In this document: in pieces, positions 24,080 to 32,167 of the stretch | How the letters are laid out: the number at the start of each line of letters is the position of its first letter | How positions within the stretch are numbered: position 1 is the first letter of the stretch | Assembly (NCBI GenBank): GCA_021806045.1 | Contig: JAJZDI010000011.1 | Location: 1-32,167, forward strand | DNA: 32,167 nucleotides | Direction: 5' to 3' | Source of the DNA: Actinomycetes bacterium | GTDB lineage: Bacteria > Actinomycetota > Acidimicrobiia > Acidimicrobiales > RAAP-2 | Made by a program: the position numbers and the translations under genes | Notes under the pieces: model-generated | Told to the model about the DNA's origin: nothing | Seen by the model: only the letters and a program-made list of their open reading frames with translations | Databases searched by the model: none

Positions 24080-24514
24080 CTACAGGCCGACGTCGTCGAG
24101 CTCGTCCAGGATGGCTCGGGTGCGAGGACCGACCATCGGTCGGATCCCGTCCTGCTCGTGGGGCTCGAGCGCATCGAGGAAGCCCAGTCCCACCAGCTCG
24201 ACGGCCGCACCGGGGTCGGATGCGATCTGCTCGAGGGCCCGGCATACACGAGCGATGCGATCGTCGTCCTGCCGGGTGGCCAGCCAGCCCGCCGTCACGC
24301 TCGCCAGTTCCGCGCAGACCTCGACCGGGCCGGGATCGTCCCCGGTGGCGTCGGCAAGGGCGGCGTAGCCGGGGAGGAACTCCGGTACGAGCACCAGGAT
24401 GACCTGCACCGCCGCCTCGCGCGGTCCGCTCGCAGGCGGGGTTGGGCCGGATGGTGAAGCTGCGTCAGGGTGGGCGTCGGGGGGCACGACTGTTCCTCGG
24501 GGACGGGCCGGCAT
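24080..24514 (-). CDS. Uncharacterised small acidic protein
   Basis: I do not recognise this gene with confidence. The 144-residue product has a Pro/Ala-rich N-terminus (1-33). A predicted helical domain follows: VQVILVLVPEFLPGYAAL (36-53), a long acidic helix region (60-105) and VELVGLGFLDALEPHEQDGI with VGPRTRAILDEL (105-140). The pattern VPEF, GFL-L-EPHE, GPRTRAILDEL vaguely recalls DUF7674-type immunity-like proteins, but this is weak. Codon use fits the genome. No signal peptide or membrane helix is seen. It converges on pheT and is divergent from the kinase gene. The ATG at 24514 lacks a clear ribosome binding site. Confidence 0.6.
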   Translation of the reverse strand: MPARPRGTVVPPDAHPDAASPSGPTPPASGPREAAVQVILVLVPEFLPGYAALADATGDDPGPVEVCAELASVTAGWLATRQDDDRIARVCRALEQIASDPGAAVELVGLGFLDALEPHEQDGIRPMVGPRTRAILDELDDVGL

Positions 24515-24580
24515 GTTGAGCCAGACGGCAGTGGTGGGCGGTGCCTGAGCGCGCCGGAGGCGGAATCTCGGCTGCCGCGA

Positions 24581-24617
24581 TCTGCGGGCACCGCAGGAGT
24601 GCCGTCTGCGGGCACCG
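24581..24617. repeat. 13-bp direct repeat in the divergent region, candidate operator
   Basis: TCTGCGGGCACCG occurs exactly at 24581-24593 and 24605-24617, start-to-start 24 bp, close to two helical turns plus a few bases. It lies in the 300-bp gap (24515-24814) between the small minus-strand gene and the histidine kinase. A 9-bp TGCCGTCTG overlapping the second copy recurs inverted at 24522-24530. A dimeric regulator site is possible. Confidence 0.5.
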
Positions 24618-24737
24618 TAGCGGGGTCGGTGCCGGCGCGCAACGCTCCGCGGACGTCGGTCACCGCCCCACGGTGCGGATCGGTGGGCGGGCCCGACCGA
24701 TCGAGTGTCAGCCCGAGCCTGGGGCGCCGTGTGGCGG

Positions 24738-24743
24738 TACGAT
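24738..24743 (+). promoter_or_regulatory. Candidate -10 for the two-component operon
   Basis: TACGAT fits TANNNT. The start of transcription would be near 24750, just before three 14-bp repeats and about 65 bases before the chosen kinase start. No clear -35 box is seen. Confidence 0.4.
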
Positions 24744-24756
24744 CGCCCCAGCACGG

Positions 24757-24798
24757 GGTGGGGAACATGTGGTTGGGAACACGTGGTGGGGACACAGG
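24757..24798 (+). repeat. Three 14-bp imperfect tandem repeats before the kinase gene
   Basis: The units GGTGGGGAACATGT, GGTTGGGAACACGT and GGTGGGGACACAGG run head to tail. The 14-bp period is not a multiple of three and the repeats cover an in-frame ATG (24767). They therefore look like a regulatory array rather than a protein repeat, which supports the downstream GTG as the real start. Confidence 0.6.
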
Positions 24799-24814
24799 AG
24801 CGGAAGGGCGGCAG

Positions 24815-26023
24815 GTGGATGGGGAGGCAGGGGTGGTGGCCCCGGTAGTCGCGCCACCAGGCGAAGGGAGATGGGACCGGCATCCCGGTGACGACGCACT
24901 GGCCGGTTCCGAACGCGCCGTGGCGTTGTCGATGCTGACCGTGCGGTTCGTGCACCTGGTCCAGGGCCTGATCTGCGTGGCGACGGGGTGGCACCGGTAC
25001 CGCCGGCCGTGGCTGGCTGCCGGCCTGCTCGGCGCGGCGACGGTCGAGTCAGCCGTTGTGGGAGGCGTTGCCTTTCGCGCCGGTAGGCATGGTGAAGCGG
25101 GTGTGTGGGTGGACAACGCCTTCGGCGTGGTCGGACTGGTGGCGATGGCGGCGGCGTCGGCCGGCCAGGACCGGACCACCTCGCTCAACTGGATGCTCCC
25201 CTACACGGTCACTTCGGCCGCAGCCACCGCCGCGCTGGACCGACCACGGTGGCGGTCCGCTGCTGCCGTCGGACTGCTCGGGGGCACCTACGCACTCTCG
25301 GTGGCACCGGCTGTCCGGCGGCGTCAGGCGGTTGCCTCGACAGCCGTGGCCAATGCGGCCAGCTACGCGGGGTTCGCCGCCGTGATGGACATCTTCGGTC
25401 GCTACCTCCGCCGGTCGGCGGCCGAGTTCGTGGAGGCCAGGGAGCTCGCCGTCGCCCGGGGAAGAGCGCTGGCCGCCGAGCAGGAGCGGACCCGCCAGTA
25501 CCGGATGCTCCACGACTCGGCGCTCCAGACACTCGAGGTCATCGGGTCGGGCGCCGTCCTCGACGATGCCGCGGTCCGGCGGCAGGCCCGTCGCGACGCC
25601 ACCCGCCTGCGCGCGTTGCTGCGCGGCGCCACTCCGGGCGCGGATGGACTGCGCTCGTCATTGGAGGAACTGGCCGACATGTGGGCCGACCGGGGGATAC
25701 GGGTGAACGTGGTGGCGGCCGAGGTGCGGGACGACCCGGGACCGGGCGTGCTGGACGCACTGACCGGTGCGGTGGGCGAAGCGCTGACCAATGTGGCCAA
25801 GCATGCCGGCGTCGACAGGGTGGTCATCCGGGCCCGGCGTGTGGCCGGAGGCATCGAAGTCTCGGTGCGGGACCACGGTCGGGGCTTCGACCCTGCGACT
25901 CGGGTGGCCCGCTACGGGGTGACGCAGTCCATCGACGGCCGGGTCGCCGCCGTCGGCGGCCGGGTGGAGCACTGGTCCGCGCCGGGCAGGGGAACGCGGG
26001 TGACGGTGTGGGTCCCGGCATGA
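24815..26023 (+). CDS. Sensor histidine kinase, NarL-partner type (HisKA_3-like/HATPase)
   Basis: This is a membrane sensor kinase. The 402-residue product has about six membrane segments in the first 195 residues (around 44-58, 66-88, 102-117, 125-141, 149-167, 174-194) and little extracellular sequence, so the signal may be sensed in or at the membrane. A coiled-coil linker leads to the dimerisation helix RQYRMLHDSALQTLEVIGSG, with phospho-acceptor His233. The ATPase domain has the N-box EALTNVAKHAG (322-332), G1 DHGRGFD (353-359) and a final G2 region APGRGTRVTVWVP. The GTG at 24815 has GGAAGGG 6 bases upstream; the ATG at 24767 is the alternative (418 residues). The stop overlaps the regulator start as ATGA. 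Confidence 0.88.
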   Translation: MDGEAGVVAPVVAPPGEGRWDRHPGDDALAGSERAVALSMLTVRFVHLVQGLICVATGWHRYRRPWLAAGLLGAATVESAVVGGVAFRAGRHGEAGVWVDNAFGVVGLVAMAAASAGQDRTTSLNWMLPYTVTSAAATAALDRPRWRSAAAVGLLGGTYALSVAPAVRRRQAVASTAVANAASYAGFAAVMDIFGRYLRRSAAEFVEARELAVARGRALAAEQERTRQYRMLHDSALQTLEVIGSGAVLDDAAVRRQARRDATRLRALLRGATPGADGLRSSLEELADMWADRGIRVNVVAAEVRDDPGPGVLDALTGAVGEALTNVAKHAGVDRVVIRARRVAGGIEVSVRDHGRGFDPATRVARYGVTQSIDGRVAAVGGRVEHWSAPGRGTRVTVWVPA

Positions 26024-26667
26024 GACGGGTCGGCCTGGTGGACGACCACCCCCTCTACCTCGAGGGGCTCCGCCGCCGGCTGCTCGACGACGGCCGGGTG
26101 GAACTGGTGGCAGCGGTGCCGTCCGTCGAGGAGCTGGAACCGTTCTGCGGCGGGCTCGAGGTCGTCCTGCTCGACCTCCACCTACCCGGTATGAGCGGCT
26201 CGAGCGCGGTGGCATGCCTGGTGCGGGCCGGCGTGCGCGTCCTGGTCCTCACCGCGTCCTCCGATCCTGACGACGTGCTCGATGCCATGACGGCGGGCGC
26301 TTCGGGCTACCTGACCAAGCAGGCGGGCGGCGAGGAGATCGTGGACGCGGTCATCCGGGTGGGCGACGGCGGGACGTACGTCTCTCCCGCGCTGGCCGGC
26401 TACCTGCTGCATGACCAACCCGACGATGCCGGGGGTGAGCGCGCCGGTCATGGAGGGACCACCGGTCACGTGCCGGTCCTCAGCTCCCGGGAGCGGCAGA
26501 TCCTGGACCTGCTCGCCCAGGGGGAGCGGGACGAGGACATCGCCGAGGCACTGTGCATCAGCGTGCACACGGTGCGGTCGCACCTCGACCGGATCCGGGC
26601 CAAGACAGGGCGCCGTCGCCGGGCGGAGCTCACGCGCATGGTCCTCGAGGAGCCGACGGTGGGCTGA
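26020..26667 (+). CDS. Response regulator, NarL/FixJ family
   Basis: This 215-residue DNA-binding regulator is partnered with the kinase upstream through an ATGA overlap. The receiver domain (1 to about 120) has acidic Asp8-Asp9, phospho-acceptor Asp52 in LLDLHLPGMSG, Thr78 and Lys100 in GYLTK. A Gly/His-rich linker (about 133-152) precedes the LuxR-type helix-turn-helix: LSSRERQILDLLAQGERDED, then IAEALCISVHTVRSHLDRIR (174-193). The target is unknown. The only gene immediately downstream is the giant secreted protein, 140 bp away, which is a natural candidate. Confidence 0.93.
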   Translation: MRRVGLVDDHPLYLEGLRRRLLDDGRVELVAAVPSVEELEPFCGGLEVVLLDLHLPGMSGSSAVACLVRAGVRVLVLTASSDPDDVLDAMTAGASGYLTKQAGGEEIVDAVIRVGDGGTYVSPALAGYLLHDQPDDAGGERAGHGGTTGHVPVLSSRERQILDLLAQGERDEDIAEALCISVHTVRSHLDRIRAKTGRRRRAELTRMVLEEPTVG

Positions 26668-26775: not shown

Positions 26776-26807
26776 CGCGCCCATGGGTACCAGTGGAGGA
26801 GAAACGC

Positions 26808-29800
26808 ATGACTCGGTGGTTGCGTTCCCTGGGAGCGGCAGTGGCGATGGTGGGAGCGGTGTTCGGGTCGATCGGTGTGATCGCCGCCTCGCCGGTACCG
26901 GCCGGCGCCACCGCCCTCGCCGGGTGGAGCCAGCAACTGAGCGAGCCAGCCCAGCCGCGGGCCGTGTCGTGCCCGTCGGCCACCAAGTGTGTGACGGTGG
27001 CCGGTGGGCAGATCGCGGTGAGCGCCGACGGCGGCAGCACGTGGTCGGCGGCCACCGTGCCGAGCGGGCTCGGGAACAACGTCGACCTCCAGAGTGTCAG
27101 CTGCCCGACCGCTTCGGACTGCTTCGCGGTCGGCACCGGGTTCGCGGGTGGCAGCTCGATGACCCTCGACACGGGGATCCTGGCGTCTACCGACGGGGGT
27201 TCGACGTGGAGCACCCAGGCGGTGCCGGCCGGGCTGGGTGGCCAGCTCGCTGCCGTCTCGTGCGTGTCGGCGACGGAGTGCGTGGCCGTCGGGAACGCGG
27301 TGGCCGAGACGACTGACGGCGGCACCACGTGGACGGCCGGATCGATGCCGGCGAGCTTGTATGAGATGACGGCCGTCTCCTGCCCGTCGAGCGGGACGTG
27401 CGTGGCCGTCGCACAGACGAGCGGTGGCACATCGACGTTCACGACGACGGACGACGGTGCGTCGTGGAGCTCGGGTACGGCGCTGCCCTCGACCATCAGC
27501 TACATGGGGGCGATCTCCTGTTCCTCCACCGCCTTCTGCGTGGCGGTCGGGTCGCAGTCCTCACCGTATGGCCCGGCCATCGAGGTCTCCACCAATACCG
27601 GAACGTCGTGGTCGGCCGGGACGCCGCCGTCCAGTTACCTGGGTGAGCTCTTCTCCGTCTCGTGCTCGTCGACGTCCACGTGCGTGGCCGTGGGCAACGG
27701 CATCGCCACCTCCACCGACGGCGGCGCGACCTGGACCCAGCAGACCGTACCGGGGGGAGCGCAGAGCCCGTCAGCGGTGTCGTGTGCCACGGCGTCGGCG
27801 TGCGCGGCCGTGGGATCAACCCCCCTCGTCACTTCGGATGGCGGCACCACGTGGACAGCCGGCTCCTTCGGGTCTGCGTTCACGCTGATCTCCTCGTTCA
27901 CCGGCGTGTCGTGCGGCTCATCGTCGATGTGCATGGCGGTGGGTTCCAGCGCCTCCGGCGCAGGGGTCGGCTACGTGACGACCACCTCGGGCTCGTCGTG
28001 GGCGCCGATCTCCTTCGGCGCAGCGCTGACCGATGTCTTCGATGTGTCGTGCTCCTCGGCGTCGGCGTGCGTGGCCGTCGGCTCGACCGCTTCGTCCGGG
28101 GTCGCGGAGGTGACGTCCGACGGTGGTTCGTCGTGGACCCAGGTGGCGCTGCCCGGTTCGAGCGTGCCCGGAGGCGGGCACATCTCGTGCGCCAACGCCT
28201 CCGACTGTGCGATCGTCGAGAATCCTCCGGCCGTAGAGGTGACGACCGACGGCGGTACCACCTGGACCGCGGGGACCCTCCCGTCGATCCTCAGCACGCC
28301 CAACGGGATGTCGTGCGCGCCGGGTGCATCTGAGACCACCTGTGTCATCGTCGGCAGCGACAGCTCGCTCAACCCGGTGATCCTCGGCTCGAGTGACGGG
28401 GGGTCGACGTGGACGGCGGAGACGGTACCGAGCGGCCTCACCACCGTGGAGGGCGCGAGTTGCCCCACCGCGTCGTTCTGCATGATCGCCGGGTACAGCG
28501 CCACCTATGTCGGTGTCGCAGCAGCCACGACGTCCGCATCGACGCCGGCCTCCACGACGTGGTCGTCCGTGACGCTTCCGTCGAGTCCCCCGCAGTTGCT
28601 GGGCGTCGCGTGCGCCACGTCGACCTCGTGTGCGCTCATCGGCGGAGGCTCCAACAGCGTGCTCACGACAACGGACGGAGGCACCACGTGGCAGTCTCCG
28701 TCCATTGATGGCGGCTATGGCATCTACGGTGCTGCCTCGTGCTCCGGAACGACGTGCGAGACGGTCAGCGACGGCAACGGCGGGTTGATCGCCGGGTCCG
28801 CCGATGCCTTCGCTGCGCCGGTGTTCGTGACCGTCACGGCCAGCCCGACCTCGGCTCCCGTCGGGTCGCCGGTGACGTACTCGGCCAGCGTCTACCCGCA
28901 ATCGGGGGTGGGAACGCCCACCGGTTCGGTGACCTTCACCGTGGGCGGCACCACGTTGTGCACGGCCACGCTCTCGTCGGGCAACGGATCATGCTCGGCC
29001 TCGAACGCGCCGGCCGGCTCGGACACGGTGACGGGCACGTACTCGGGTGATTTGACGTTCGGCGGGGGCACGGGACAGGTGGGGATCACCATTACCGGCA
29101 CCGGGACGACGACGACCACGCTCTCGGTGAACCCCACCTCGGTCGACGGGGGGCAGTCGGTCACCTACACGGCGACGGTCACGCCCACAAGCGGTGCCAC
29201 CACGCCCACCGGTTCGGTGACCATCGAGCTCGCCAACGGCGGTCCCGTGATGTGCGAGCAGCCGCTGGCCGCGGGCTTGGGCAACTCCGCAGTGGCCACC
29301 TGCACGTCCGCGGTCGCACCCATCGGGAACGACACGGTCTCCGCCGTCTATTCAGGTGACGCCACCTACGCGTCGTCGACAGGGCAGACGACCCTCGACG
29401 TCATCGGCGTCAACACGACCACTTCGATCACCGTGAGCCCGACCACCGTTGCCGGAGGGGCGACCGTGACCTACTCGGCCACGGTGGCACCTGCCACCGG
29501 AACGGCCGCGCCCACAGGTTCGGTCGCATTCGTTACGGACGCCGCCACCCTGTGCGTGGCCACCCTCTCGCCAGGGTCGGTAGCGACCGCCACCGGATCG
29601 TGCACGAGCTCGCAGGCGCCTGTGGGAACCGACGCGGTCAGTGGCTTCTACTCCGGCGACTCGACGTTCAGTTCGTCGCACGGGACCGCCGACCTGACCG
29701 TCAACGGCATCAACACCTCCATGACCCTGTCAGCATCTCCCAGCACGGTGACGGGGGGGTCGACGGTCACCTATACCGTTACCGTCACGCCGGCCAGCGG

Positions 29801-32167
29801 GACGACCGTCCCGAGCGGTTCGGTCTCGGTCTCCTCGGGGACCGGTCTGCTGTGCTCGGTCACGTTGGCCCCCGGTATCGGGGCGAGCGCCACCGGATCG
29901 TGCGGCAGTGCACAGGCGCCGGTCGGCACCGATTCCGTCTACGCATACTTCCCGGCCACGACGACGTTCGGATCGTCCTCGGCATCGACGACCGTCACGG
30001 TGACGGGAACGACCACGACGACGTCCATCACCGCCAACCCGACATCGGTTGTCGGCGGGAGCGGCGTGACCTTCAGCGCCACGGTGGCACCTGCCAGTGG
30101 AACGACCGCACCGACCGGGTCGGTGTCGTTCACCACGTCTGACGGGACCTTCCTCTGTTCGGCGATCCTGTCGCCCGCGTCAGGCGGAGGCGGAACGGCC
30201 GTCGGGTCGTGCGCGGCGAACACCGCGCCCGTCGGAGCTGACACCGTGGTCGGCTACTACAGCGGCGACACCAGCTTCGCTGCGTCCCAGGGTTCGACAG
30301 CGCTGACGGTGACGGGAACGCCGACGACGACCGTCGTCGCGGTGAATCCGACGACGGTCTCGGGGGGCGCTCAAGTGAGCTACAGCGCCACGGTGTCCGC
30401 CGCGAGCGGGAGTGCCGCGCCCTCGGGGAGCGTCCAGTTCGGGGCAGGACCGAACTTCTTGTGCTCTGCCACCCTGGCGCCGGCCTCCGGTGCGACGTCA
30501 AGTGGTTCGTGCACCTCGACGGCGGCACCGGTGGGTGCCGATACGGTGTCCGGCTCGTATGGGGGATCGGGCCCGTTCGAAGGGTCGCAGGGGTCGACCA
30601 CGCTGACCGTCACCGGTACGTCCACGTCGACCACCGTGTCGGCCAACCCGTCGCCTGCGACGGGCGGCTCGACGGTCACCTACACGGCCACGGTGACGCC
30701 GTCAGGTGGTAGTGGTAGCAGCGCGCCGACCGGGTCGGTGACGATCTCCGCTGGGAGGACGTCGTTGTGCACCGTGACCCTGGCTCCCGGGTCGGGGGTG
30801 TCCGCCACCGGAACCTGCACCTCGGCGGCGGCACCAGTAGGAACGGACGACATCACCGGGAGCTACAGCGGCACAGCGTCGTTCGGCCCGTCCGAGGGTT
30901 CGACCACATTGACGGTCAACGGCACGGCCACCACGACCGCCATCACCGTGAGCCCGTCGACCGCTGATGCCGGCAGTGCCGTCACCTACTCGGCCACGGT
31001 GACCCCTGCCGGCGGGAGCAGCGTCCCGACCGGCTTCGTGACCTTCTCGGTCGGTTCGACTCCGATCTGTTCGGCCAACCTTTCGCCCACCTCGGGGTCG
31101 GTAGCCGGGGGTAGCTGCAGCGGAACGGGTGCGCCGGCGGGTAGCGACACGGTGACAGGGACCTACTCCGGTGACACGAATTTCGCCACCTCCGACGCGA
31201 CGACCCAGCTCACCGTGATCGGCACGGCGACGATCACGGCGGTCACCGTGAGCCCGACGTCGGTTGGTAGCGGAGCGAGTGTCACCTACGCAGCGACGGT
31301 GAGCCCGACGGGTAGCTCCGCCGTGCCGACCGGGACGGTCACGTTCACCATCGGATCGGCCACCATCTGCACGGCGACGCTGGCGGCTGGCACGGGTACG
31401 TCGGCGACGGGCTCGTGTTCGGCGACGACCGCGCCGGGGGGAACGGACACCGTCGATGGCTCCTACTCGGGCGACACGACCTTCGATCCGTCATCGGGGA
31501 ACGCATCGCTGACCGTCAGTTCCACCTCGACCACCACCACCACACCTTCGGTCAACCCCACCTCTGCCACCTTCGGCACCCAGGTCACCTACGCGGCCAC
31601 CGTGTCGGGCTCGGGCGGCACGCCGACGGGCACCGTCACCTTCTCCATCGGCTCGACCTCCATCTGCTCGGCCACCCTGTCGGGCGGCACCGGCAGCTGC
31701 AAGGCCACCAACGCCCCGGTGGGCACCGACACGGTGACCGCCACCTACTCGGGTGACACGAACTTCGGGGGCTCCACGGGGACGGCCACCCTCACCGTCA
31801 CCCAGGCCACCCCGACGGTCGGGATGTCGACCACCCCCACCTCTGCCACCTTCGGCACCCAGGTCACCTACACGGCCACCGTGTCGGGCCCGGGCGGCAC
31901 CCCGGGTGGCACCGTCGCCTTCACCGTCGGCTCGACCCCCATCTGCACGGCCACCCTCTCCGCCGGCACCGGTTCGTGCAACGCCGCCAACGCCCCGGTG
32001 GGCACCGACACGGTGACCGCCACCTACTCGGGTGACACGAACTTCGTCGGCGGGGGGACGGCCACCGCCAGCCTGACTGTCACCCAGGCCACCCCGACGA
32101 TCGGGATGTCGACCACCCCCACCTCTGCCACCTTCGGCACCCAGGTCACCTACGCGGCCACCGTGTC
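26808..32167 (+). CDS. Giant secreted beta-propeller / Ig-repeat protein (3' end cut by the window)
   Basis: The frame stays open to the last base, giving at least 1786 residues. A signal peptide is clear: MTRWLRSLGAAVAMVGAVFG, then a hydrophobic core and PVPAGA near 30-35. Residues about 37-670 hold BNR/Ycf48-like propeller blades with Asp boxes such as STDGGSTW and TTDGGTTW. Each blade starts with a Cys pair (VSCPSATKC, VSCPTASDC and so on); I count 14 pairs, which suggests two seven-bladed propellers. From about 672 follow Big_3-type Ig modules of 93-103 residues, 11 complete plus part of a 12th, each with NPTS or SPTS, G-VTYSATV, PTGSV, a Cys pair and TYSGDTNF motifs. No LPXTG or membrane anchor is reached. 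The ATG has GGAGGAG 6 bases upstream. It is probably an adhesin or matrix protein; this is inferred from architecture. Confidence 0.88.
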   Translation, partial: MTRWLRSLGAAVAMVGAVFGSIGVIAASPVPAGATALAGWSQQLSEPAQPRAVSCPSATKCVTVAGGQIAVSADGGSTWSAATVPSGLGNNVDLQSVSCPTASDCFAVGTGFAGGSSMTLDTGILASTDGGSTWSTQAVPAGLGGQLAAVSCVSATECVAVGNAVAETTDGGTTWTAGSMPASLYEMTAVSCPSSGTCVAVAQTSGGTSTFTTTDDGASWSSGTALPSTISYMGAISCSSTAFCVAVGSQSSPYGPAIEVSTNTGTSWSAGTPPSSYLGELFSVSCSSTSTCVAVGNGIATSTDGGATWTQQTVPGGAQSPSAVSCATASACAAVGSTPLVTSDGGTTWTAGSFGSAFTLISSFTGVSCGSSSMCMAVGSSASGAGVGYVTTTSGSSWAPISFGAALTDVFDVSCSSASACVAVGSTASSGVAEVTSDGGSSWTQVALPGSSVPGGGHISCANASDCAIVENPPAVEVTTDGGTTWTAGTLPSILSTPNGMSCAPGASETTCVIVGSDSSLNPVILGSSDGGSTWTAETVPSGLTTVEGASCPTASFCMIAGYSATYVGVAAATTSASTPASTTWSSVTLPSSPPQLLGVACATSTSCALIGGGSNSVLTTTDGGTTWQSPSIDGGYGIYGAASCSGTTCETVSDGNGGLIAGSADAFAAPVFVTVTASPTSAPVGSPVTYSASVYPQSGVGTPTGSVTFTVGGTTLCTATLSSGNGSCSASNAPAGSDTVTGTYSGDLTFGGGTGQVGITITGTGTTTTTLSVNPTSVDGGQSVTYTATVTPTSGATTPTGSVTIELANGGPVMCEQPLAAGLGNSAVATCTSAVAPIGNDTVSAVYSGDATYASSTGQTTLDVIGVNTTTSITVSPTTVAGGATVTYSATVAPATGTAAPTGSVAFVTDAATLCVATLSPGSVATATGSCTSSQAPVGTDAVSGFYSGDSTFSSSHGTADLTVNGINTSMTLSASPSTVTGGSTVTYTVTVTPASGTTVPSGSVSVSSGTGLLCSVTLAPGIGASATGSCGSAQAPVGTDSVYAYFPATTTFGSSSASTTVTVTGTTTTTSITANPTSVVGGSGVTFSATVAPASGTTAPTGSVSFTTSDGTFLCSAILSPASGGGGTAVGSCAANTAPVGADTVVGYYSGDTSFAASQGSTALTVTGTPTTTVVAVNPTTVSGGAQVSYSATVSAASGSAAPSGSVQFGAGPNFLCSATLAPASGATSSGSCTSTAAPVGADTVSGSYGGSGPFEGSQGSTTLTVTGTSTSTTVSANPSPATGGSTVTYTATVTPSGGSGSSAPTGSVTISAGRTSLCTVTLAPGSGVSATGTCTSAAAPVGTDDITGSYSGTASFGPSEGSTTLTVNGTATTTAITVSPSTADAGSAVTYSATVTPAGGSSVPTGFVTFSVGSTPICSANLSPTSGSVAGGSCSGTGAPAGSDTVTGTYSGDTNFATSDATTQLTVIGTATITAVTVSPTSVGSGASVTYAATVSPTGSSAVPTGTVTFTIGSATICTATLAAGTGTSATGSCSATTAPGGTDTVDGSYSGDTTFDPSSGNASLTVSSTSTTTTTPSVNPTSATFGTQVTYAATVSGSGGTPTGTVTFSIGSTSICSATLSGGTGSCKATNAPVGTDTVTATYSGDTNFGGSTGTATLTVTQATPTVGMSTTPTSATFGTQVTYTATVSGPGGTPGGTVAFTVGSTPICTATLSAGTGSCNAANAPVGTDTVTATYSGDTNFVGGGTATASLTVTQATPTIGMSTTPTSATFGTQVTYAATV
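31554..32167 (+). repeat. Near-identical DNA repeats of the last Ig modules
   Basis: The last modules repeat at the DNA level: CCTCTGCCACCTTCGGCACC occurs at 31561, 31840 and 32122, spacings of 279 and 282 bp (93 and 94 codons). Long runs between them are also identical or nearly so, for example around GTGGGCACCGACACGGTGAC. The earlier modules (28820-31500) are much more diverged. This points to recent tandem expansion that continues past the window edge. Confidence 0.85.

What the first reader, a model, noticed from the sequence alone, without database searches (positions are those of the whole stretch)
26808..28815. Fourteen Cys-paired BNR blades, likely a double seven-bladed propeller with N-terminal closure
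Fourteen C-x(4-8)-C motifs are spaced about 40-50 residues apart, each followed by a hydrophobic strand; 13 are followed by an Asp box or its remnant (xxDGGxTW). The 14th blade lacks its Trp strand, while the mature N-terminus has an orphan GWSQQL segment before the first Cys pair. That could complete the last blade (velcro closure). A disulfide in each blade would suit an extracellular, stress-resistant propeller. Blades this regular with paired Cys are poorly described.
Basis: partly seen in the sequence, partly recalled or inferred. Interest (0 to 1): 0.62.

Follow-up and report, generated by a model that had tools for sequence, protein, structure and literature searches.

The report
Secreted double propeller with cysteine-stapled blades
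A very large secreted bacterial protein begins with what looks like two seven-bladed propeller rings in which every blade carries a matched pair of cysteines, probably a disulfide staple; the fold is known, but this stapled version forms a large, mostly unnamed family in one group of actinobacteria.

Summary
The gene at 26808 encodes a signal-peptide-like start, an orphan Trp strand and 14 blades, each with a Cys pair (12 C-x5-C, one x8, one x4); all 28 cysteines are paired. In all 14 blades the pair brackets the strand 1-2 loop; S-S distances could not be measured. Across 69 such proteins the pair is kept almost without exception. Blade number is mostly 7 or 14, once 28, yet blades seven apart are no more alike than others, so 14 did not arise by simple doubling of a ring. 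The propeller has one Lys and one Arg in 638 residues. Ig-like repeats and, past an assembly gap, an unannotated repeat follow. Best reading: a disulfide-stapled tandem Asp-box propeller heading a giant secreted surface protein, probably a binding or adhesion head (inferred). It is a new variant of a known fold: GH74-like tandem rings, Ycf48-like blades; a disulfide in five of six blades is known from malaria CyRPA.

The parts
26808..32167 (+). gene for the giant secreted propeller / Ig-repeat protein (runs past the window end into a 10-N gap)
26795..26799 (+). ribosome-binding-site-like GGAGG
   Evidence: read
26808..26912 (+). signal-peptide-like start (residues 1-35, cleavage site approximate)
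   Evidence: sequence reading: MTRWLRS, hydrophobic core, AGATA; no predictor was run
26922..26939 (+). orphan N-terminal strand GWSQQL (residues 39-44), modelled as part of ring 2
   Evidence: Trp upstream in 16 of 21 proteins with 14 or 28 blades
26946..27869 (+). ring 1 (blades 1-7, residues 47-354)
   Evidence: 7bie aligns to model 15-322, Z 29.2
27870..28814 (+). ring 2 (blades 8-14, residues 355-669), closed by the N-terminal strand
   Evidence: 47 of 50 rows span 2-7 to 633-641 with 275-293 aligned residues
26961..27092 (+). blade 1, C55/C61
27093..27251 (+). blade 2, C99/C105
27252..27371 (+). blade 3, C152/C158
27372..27509 (+). blade 4, C192/C198
27510..27653 (+). blade 5, C238/C244
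27654..27773 (+). blade 6, C286/C292
27774..27902 (+). blade 7, C326/C332
27903..28040 (+). blade 8, C369/C375
28041..28178 (+). blade 9, C415/C421
28179..28304 (+). blade 10, C461/C467
28305..28451 (+). blade 11, C503/C512 (x8 loop)
28452..28601 (+). blade 12, C552/C558
28602..28730 (+). blade 13, C602/C608
28731..28814 (+). blade 14, C645/C650 (x4 loop, no Trp strand of its own)
28824..32165 (+). Big_3_5 Ig-like repeats (11 matched stretches; 11 Cys pairs)
   Evidence: PF16640 E 3.5e-120; Cys positions

Best explanation
This is the N-terminal head of a giant secreted surface protein: two seven-bladed Asp-box beta-propellers in tandem (14 blades), with the N-terminal strand completing the last blade of the second ring. 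Each blade is stapled by a disulfide between the end of strand 1 and the start of strand 2. A long Ig-like stalk and, after an assembly gap, a GYWLVA-DGG repeat domain follow. It most likely works as a rigid, robust binding or adhesion head displayed outside the cell. Shown from sequence: 14 blades, Cys pairs, family conservation. Predicted: 2 x 7 fold and N-terminal closure. Inferred: disulfides, export, surface display. Inferred with little evidence: binding or adhesion, and tolerance of harsh conditions.
For: Blade count and Cys pairs. Two-ring model and N-terminal closure; the 20 best Foldseek matches are GH74-type tandem seven-bladed enzymes. Cys pairs bracket the strand 1-2 hairpin in 14 of 14 blades. 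In 69 proteins, the window's among them, both Cys are present in 687 of 694 blades, 5 more have longer loops, 2 have neither; 1368 of 1378 Cys in the spans of 64 arrays are in pairs. The genome has a VKOR, an oxidative-folding enzyme, E 1.2e-29. Blade number: 7, 14 or 28 in 38 of 50 complete ORFs by a strict count, 44 of 50 after inspection; in a second set 17 of 32 strict, 24 of 30 arrays after inspection. Surface context: Ig repeats, TIG, PASTA and fn3 domains in some relatives, lipobox-like starts or LAATG-plus-hydrophobic tails in some, read by eye. Precedent: CyRPA, a six-bladed propeller whose five disulfides each lie within one blade (PMC5349852, passages).
Against: One AlphaFold run of the 14-blade protein on 17 sequences; its five models range from pLDDT 67 to 83, pTM 0.71, and the N-terminal strand is weak. 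No coordinates, so no S-S distance. No solved structure with this Cys pattern turned up by sequence among the rows shown. In the seven-blade control model residues 1-20, which hold the Trp strand, are below pLDDT 50, so closure is not confirmed there. 5 of 21 proteins with 14 or 28 blades lack the upstream Trp. Exceptions to the rule of seven exist (4, 6, 8, 10, 11, 12 and 16 blades). No direct evidence on ligand or localisation.
Confidence: 0.72

Rival explanations
1. A secreted glycoside hydrolase of the GH74 type, with the active site in the cleft between the two rings.
For: The 20 best Foldseek matches of the model are GH74-type enzymes; same 7+7 Asp-box architecture; with the A1 profile GH74 chains are the best PDB sequences after the first Ycf48 chain (6p2o E 2e-6).
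Against: No match above a curated enzyme cut-off in Pfam or NCBIfam (only Big_3_5, PSII_BNR and BNR_2 pass), though a GH74 model may not be in these libraries. Identity to GH74 in the Foldseek alignments is 11-16%. Catalytic residues were not mapped because no coordinates are given.
Confidence: 0.1
2. The Cys pairs are free thiols that bind a soft metal around each ring rather than forming disulfides.
For: Seven pairs per ring would lie at equivalent positions at one face of each ring (inference from the fold).
Against: Secreted protein and VKOR in the genome. Pairs are kept even when the loop grows to about 45 residues in three relatives, as a staple would need. One His in 638 residues, so His ligands are not available. 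In CyRPA within-blade disulfides are described (PMC5349852, passages).
Confidence: 0.07
3. One single 14-bladed ring closed by the N-terminal strand.
For: Sequence alone allows it: one uninterrupted run of 14 blades with one N-terminal strand and one incomplete last blade.
Against: AlphaFold gives two rings, each matching solved seven-bladed rings at Z about 27-29; seven-blade relatives exist as complete proteins; the 14-blade WD40 protein Npun_R6612 folds as two seven-bladed rings (PMC9218822, passages read).
Confidence: 0.03

Closest known systems
GH74 xyloglucanases (tandem 7+7 Asp-box propellers)
   Same: Two seven-bladed rings from one continuous run of Asp-box blades; best Foldseek matches of the model
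   Different: PMC2716378 has no occurrence of 'disulfide' or 'cystein' in its main text, so no Cys pair per blade is described there; 11-16% identity; no enzyme-family match above cut-off
Ycf48 / PSII_BNR (PF14870), single seven-bladed Asp-box ring
   Same: Best propeller-family match by sequence: PF14870 54.7 bits against a cut-off of 27; top Foldseek match of the seven-blade relative
   Different: Two rings, Cys pairs, Ig stalk; far below the Ycf48 equivalog cut-off, 60.8 of 326 bits
PfCyRPA of Plasmodium falciparum (six-bladed sialidase-fold propeller)
   Same: Asp-box propeller with a disulfide within each of five blades, and a blade without one formed by the two chain ends (PMC5349852, passages)
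   Different: One six-bladed ring, a single Asp box, five rather than all blades stapled; where in the blade its disulfides lie was not compared; not a member found by any search here
Sortilin / Vps10 domain (10-bladed Asp-box propeller)
   Same: Extracellular Asp-box propeller (PMC2716378, passages); Pfam Sortilin-Vps10 matches stretches of two relatives above cut-off
   Different: Predicted blade number per ring is seven, not ten
Dispase autolysis-inducing protein of Streptomyces mobaraensis (5fzp, 6fhp)
   Same: Foldseek match of the seven-blade relative at 19-20% identity, the highest in the 50 rows shown
   Different: Not among the rows shown of the profile searches; its cysteines were not examined here, its paper is not held under the identifier tried
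Npun_R6612 / WRAP (14 near-identical WD40 blades, two seven-bladed rings)
   Same: 14 blades in one run fold as two rings (PMC9218822, passages and part 1 of section 14)
   Different: WD40 lineage; that paper's main text does not mention cysteine or disulfide

Membership tests
Asp-box beta-propeller superfamily | Asp box (S/T-x-D-x-G-x-[ST]-W) between strands 3 and 4 of several blades | tested here: met
   8 strict boxes in 14 blades, 10 good or near by reading; the strand 3-4 position is from PMC2716378 (passages) and fits the strand order in the model
[quoted passage not shown]
   predicted: 47 of 50 rows pair residues from 2-7 on with the second ring; moderate confidence of that strand
Ycf48 / PSII_BNR | Pfam PF14870 gathering score | tested here: met
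   54.7 bits, cut-off 27
Ycf48 / PSII_BNR | NCBIfam Ycf48 equivalog score | tested here: not met
   60.8 bits, cut-off 326
GH74 | tandem seven-bladed Asp-box rings | tested here: met
   predicted
GH74 | pair of catalytic Asp in the inter-ring cleft (recalled) | not testable with these tools
   no model coordinates are given
GH33 sialidase | arginine triad in the active site (recalled) | tested here: not met
   one Arg in the 638-residue propeller
Sortilin / Vps10 | ten-bladed ring | tested here: not met
   predicted rings of seven
Sortilin / Vps10 | 10CC module after the ring | not tested
   the Pfam list shows Ig repeats there, but the module was not sought as such
Cys-paired propeller group proposed here | Cys pair bracketing the strand 1-2 loop in nearly every blade | tested here: met
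   14 of 14 blades
Cys-paired propeller group proposed here | the pairs form disulfides | not testable with these tools
   no coordinates and no solved member found

The most novel reading that the evidence does not exclude
A distinct lineage of disulfide-stapled propellers, partly invisible to Pfam, has radiated in one actinobacterial order. Each array was amplified from single blades rather than by copying whole rings, yet selection keeps blade number at 7, 14 or 28. The staple, with almost no Lys or Arg, makes propellers suited to a harsh exterior.
Probability: 0.4. Interest if true: 0.55.

Novelty: new variant of a known kind. Interest (0 to 1): 0.4.

Why it matters
If the disulfides are real, this is a natural way of stapling a propeller once per blade, useful for stable binding scaffolds. 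The family also makes an open question testable: why blade counts stay mostly at multiples of seven when blades seem to be amplified singly. Many arrays with 7, 14 or 28 blades, with and without Asp boxes, are now listed from one order. Some members (L040, L165) match no Pfam family at E 0.01, so the group is under-annotated.

Tried and rejected
Pfam BNR_6 gave no hit in the genome. Plasmid records held only two distant Ycf48-like matches. Sequence searches of the PDB showed no solved Cys-paired propeller (in some only 60 of 69 and 60 of 85 rows are shown). An i to i+7 similarity, expected if 14 came from doubling a 7-blade ring, was not seen: mean deviation at offset 7 is -0.4 percentage points over 26 arrays, the window's included; the best-scoring other blade lies in the same protein for 57 of 77 blades of seven proteins in the genome. 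Gene conversion among blades could also erase such a signal. Ten literature searches listed no paper that I could recognise as describing a bacterial propeller with a Cys pair in every blade; they cover only the held open-access library and the words used, and most listed papers were seen as a listing only. The first of them listed the CyRPA paper, whose passages I read only at the end: it is a known propeller with a disulfide in five of six blades. The one paper listed is not relevant (passages). No promoter or terminator match near the start.

Blade counts. The loci are best matches per genome, not a random sample; two pairs of the 50 ORFs are close copies sharing a 40-residue stretch. First set (50 complete ORFs, links of 28-120 residues), strict: 4 in 4, 7 in 21, 8 in 3, 9 in 1, 11 in 2, 13 in 2, 14 in 16, 28 in 1. 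Re-read as 7: L033, L153, L162 (long insert inside one Cys loop), L027, L161, L164. Left as exceptions: L135 12, L052 11, L172 11, L186 8, L055 13 (start probably misplaced), L191 4. Second set (links of 28-75): of 40 regions from genomes first met, L270 was skipped because it repeats L054; 32 complete ORFs gave 7 in 6 and 14 in 11. None of the 32 shares a 60-residue Cys-blade stretch with the earlier loci. On reading two out-of-frame ORFs (second ORF of L258, L284) were dropped; L266, L280, second array of L272, L286 were read as 14; L269 as 4 + 10 over two ORFs; L276 as a 7 and a 14. Exceptions: L252 12, L254 6, L261 16, L274 10, L288 6, L275 unclear. Fifteen incomplete ORFs were not counted. 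Further 8-blade arrays outside both sets: L207, L209, L213, L215. All corrections were made after seeing the strict counts.

Full report
What is there. The finding covers the first 669 codons of a gene that starts at 26808, 8 bases after a GGAGG. The protein has a signal-peptide-like start, then GWSQQL, then 14 units of 40-53 residues. Each unit opens with a short strand ending in Cys, a loop of mostly five residues, Cys, a second strand, a third strand, an Asp box and a Trp strand. Twelve loops are x5, one x8, one x4. All 28 cysteines of the propeller lie in these pairs. Blade 14 has no Trp strand. After the propeller come Big_3_5 Ig-like repeats to the window end (PF16640, E 3.5e-120), with 11 further Cys pairs. 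The window ends at an assembly gap of 10 N; on the other side an open frame continues with seven more Big_3_5 matches and a GYWLVA-DGG repeat up to contig position 35203. That repeat also ends two paralogs on contig 15 (by reading), occurs at least twice in 12 of 69 Cys-type proteins, and shows no Pfam match (E up to 0.001, 0.01).

Fold. An alignment of the window protein with 16 relatives (A1) gave an AlphaFold model with pLDDT 83.0 and pTM 0.71. Foldseek's first 20 matches are GH74-type tandem seven-bladed enzymes. In the second alignment (50 rows shown) 7bie matches residues 15-322 (Z 29.2, rmsd 2.3, 271 residues) and 7ron 16-321 (Z 27.9), 2ymu spans both rings, and the other 47 rows span 2-7 to 633-641 with only 275-293 residues aligned (Z 26.8-28.5). 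The simplest reading is ring 1 = blades 1-7 and ring 2 = blades 8-14 plus the N-terminal strand. Residue pairs are not printed, so this is read from ranges and lengths. A seven-blade relative (L057, A2) gave a model of pLDDT 82.7, pTM 0.84 whose best Foldseek matches are Ycf48; its first 20 residues are below pLDDT 50, so the closure by the Trp strand is not confirmed there.

Cysteines. In the model the pair sits at the end of strand 1 and the start of strand 2 in 14 of 14 blades: in 9 the first Cys is the last residue of its strand, in 2 it directly follows the strand, in 3 the strands run on one or two residues into the loop. No coordinates are given, so distances could not be measured. In 69 proteins with Cys pairs in at least half of their blades (the window's included), 694 blades scored: 687 with a pair, 2 with none, 5 flagged single. 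Of the five, two have a ten-residue loop beyond my pattern, and three have the partner far upstream because a Pro/Thr-rich insert makes the Cys loop about 45 residues long (L033, L153, L162). Blades were found with a profile trained on Cys blades, which could favour paired ones; against this, few spacings inside the arrays are long enough to hide a missed blade. Over the spans of 64 arrays 1368 of 1378 cysteines are in pairs. In 85 other proteins found by the blade profile, 327 of 384 blades have no Cys, 51 a single one and 6 a pair. The genome has a VKOR. Disulfides are therefore likely, not shown.

Who has it. All genome tallies include the window's own genome. The window protein matches 39 of 61 nearby genomes. 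A paralog's propeller matches 118 of 147 genomes of the family and 35 of 396 of the phylum; of the 29 new loci from the latter, 13 have a chain of four or more Cys pairs. A two-blade profile (A3) matches 30 of 396 in the phylum and 90 of 347 in the order. In the named genome collection (best 80 loci kept of a capped list) Cys blades dominate in six: four titled Actinomycetes bacterium, one Acidimicrobiaceae, one Chloroflexi; the other blade proteins of that collection printed, some of them actinobacterial, lack them but for a lone pair in L105 and L120. The genome itself has six more such proteins among those examined.

Blade number. Counting Cys motifs by a fixed rule in 50 complete ORFs gives 7 in 21, 14 in 16 and 28 in 1, that is 38 of 50; after reading the outliers 44 of 50. 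A second set was then taken from genomes first met, 40 regions: 17 of 32 complete ORFs by the rule, 24 of 30 arrays after inspection, including one protein with a 7 and a 14 array (L276). Exceptions are real and listed under Tried and rejected; a group with eight blades exists (L186, L207, L209, L213, L215). The corrected figures were made with knowledge of the hypothesis. Blades seven apart are no more alike than others (26 arrays), and blades usually resemble their own protein best (57 of 77), so arrays look amplified blade by blade. The window protein and its 81% relative match blade for blade (13 of 13), so this array is older than that split. PMC9218822 (passages and part 1 of section 14) reports peaks at 7 and 14 for WD40-like propellers and a 14-blade protein folding as two rings; the present pattern extends that to Cys-paired Asp-box blades.

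Composition. The propeller has 1 Lys, 1 Arg, 1 His and 34 Asp or Glu in 638 residues; the Ig part is similar. Median Lys+Arg is 2.0% in 69 Cys-type propellers and 5.2% in 85 others. The lone Arg rules out the sialidase arginine triad (recalled feature).

Function. Direct evidence is lacking. The signal-peptide-like start, Ig stalk, TIG, PASTA and fn3 partners, lipobox-like starts and LAATG-plus-hydrophobic tails in some relatives (the last two features by eye) point to surface display; a binding or adhesion head is the most economical role. A GH74-like enzyme cannot be excluded; GH74 chains are also the best PDB sequences after the first Ycf48 chain. Upstream lie a histidine kinase and a LuxR-type response regulator, by reading in the same order in the second species; a regulatory link is only a guess.

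Known or new. PMC2716378 (passages) describes Asp-box propellers of 5, 6, 7, 7+7 and 10 blades with velcro closure and does not contain the words disulfide or cysteine in its main text. PMC5349852 (passages) describes CyRPA, a six-bladed sialidase-fold propeller of the malaria parasite with one disulfide within each of five blades and a blade without one made from the two chain ends. So stapling blade by blade has a precedent in a single six-bladed ring; a bacterial family with a pair in every blade and two rings did not turn up in my ten searches. I therefore file it as a new variant of a known kind. Reading the CyRPA passages lowered my interest score slightly, from 0.42 to 0.40.

Noticed in passing
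window 24470-26667: Histidine kinase and LuxR-type response regulator directly upstream, after pheS-pheT; by reading, the same order is kept in the second species of the genus (L044).
   Followed up: partly
L037 5881-8904 (contig 32180-35203): After the 10-N gap the frame continues with Ig repeats and ends in GYWLVA-DGG repeats that also end two contig-15 paralogs; Pfam showed no match for this repeat.
   Followed up: partly
window 26808-32165: Near absence of Lys and Arg: 2 in the 638-residue propeller and 2 in 1111 residues of the Ig part.
   Followed up: partly
L033, L153, L162: Seven-blade relatives in which one Cys loop is about 45 residues long, with a Pro/Thr-rich insert, while both cysteines stay.
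   Followed up: partly
L186, L207, L209, L213, L215: A group of eight-bladed Cys-paired arrays, by eye without Asp boxes.
   Followed up: partly
L040 5088-6839, L165 1432-3741: Fourteen-blade Cys-paired arrays in proteins that match no Pfam family at E 0.01.
   Followed up: partly
L288 464-3700: Six Cys-paired blades at the C-terminal end of a protein whose middle looks like an RHS/YD-repeat protein (by eye).
   Followed up: no
L269 3648-6701: A 14-blade array split over two adjacent ORFs (4 + 10 blades), an assembly error or a broken gene.
   Followed up: no
L049 4854-11111: A 2085-residue protein with 28 regularly spaced Cys-paired blades, four times seven.
   Followed up: partly
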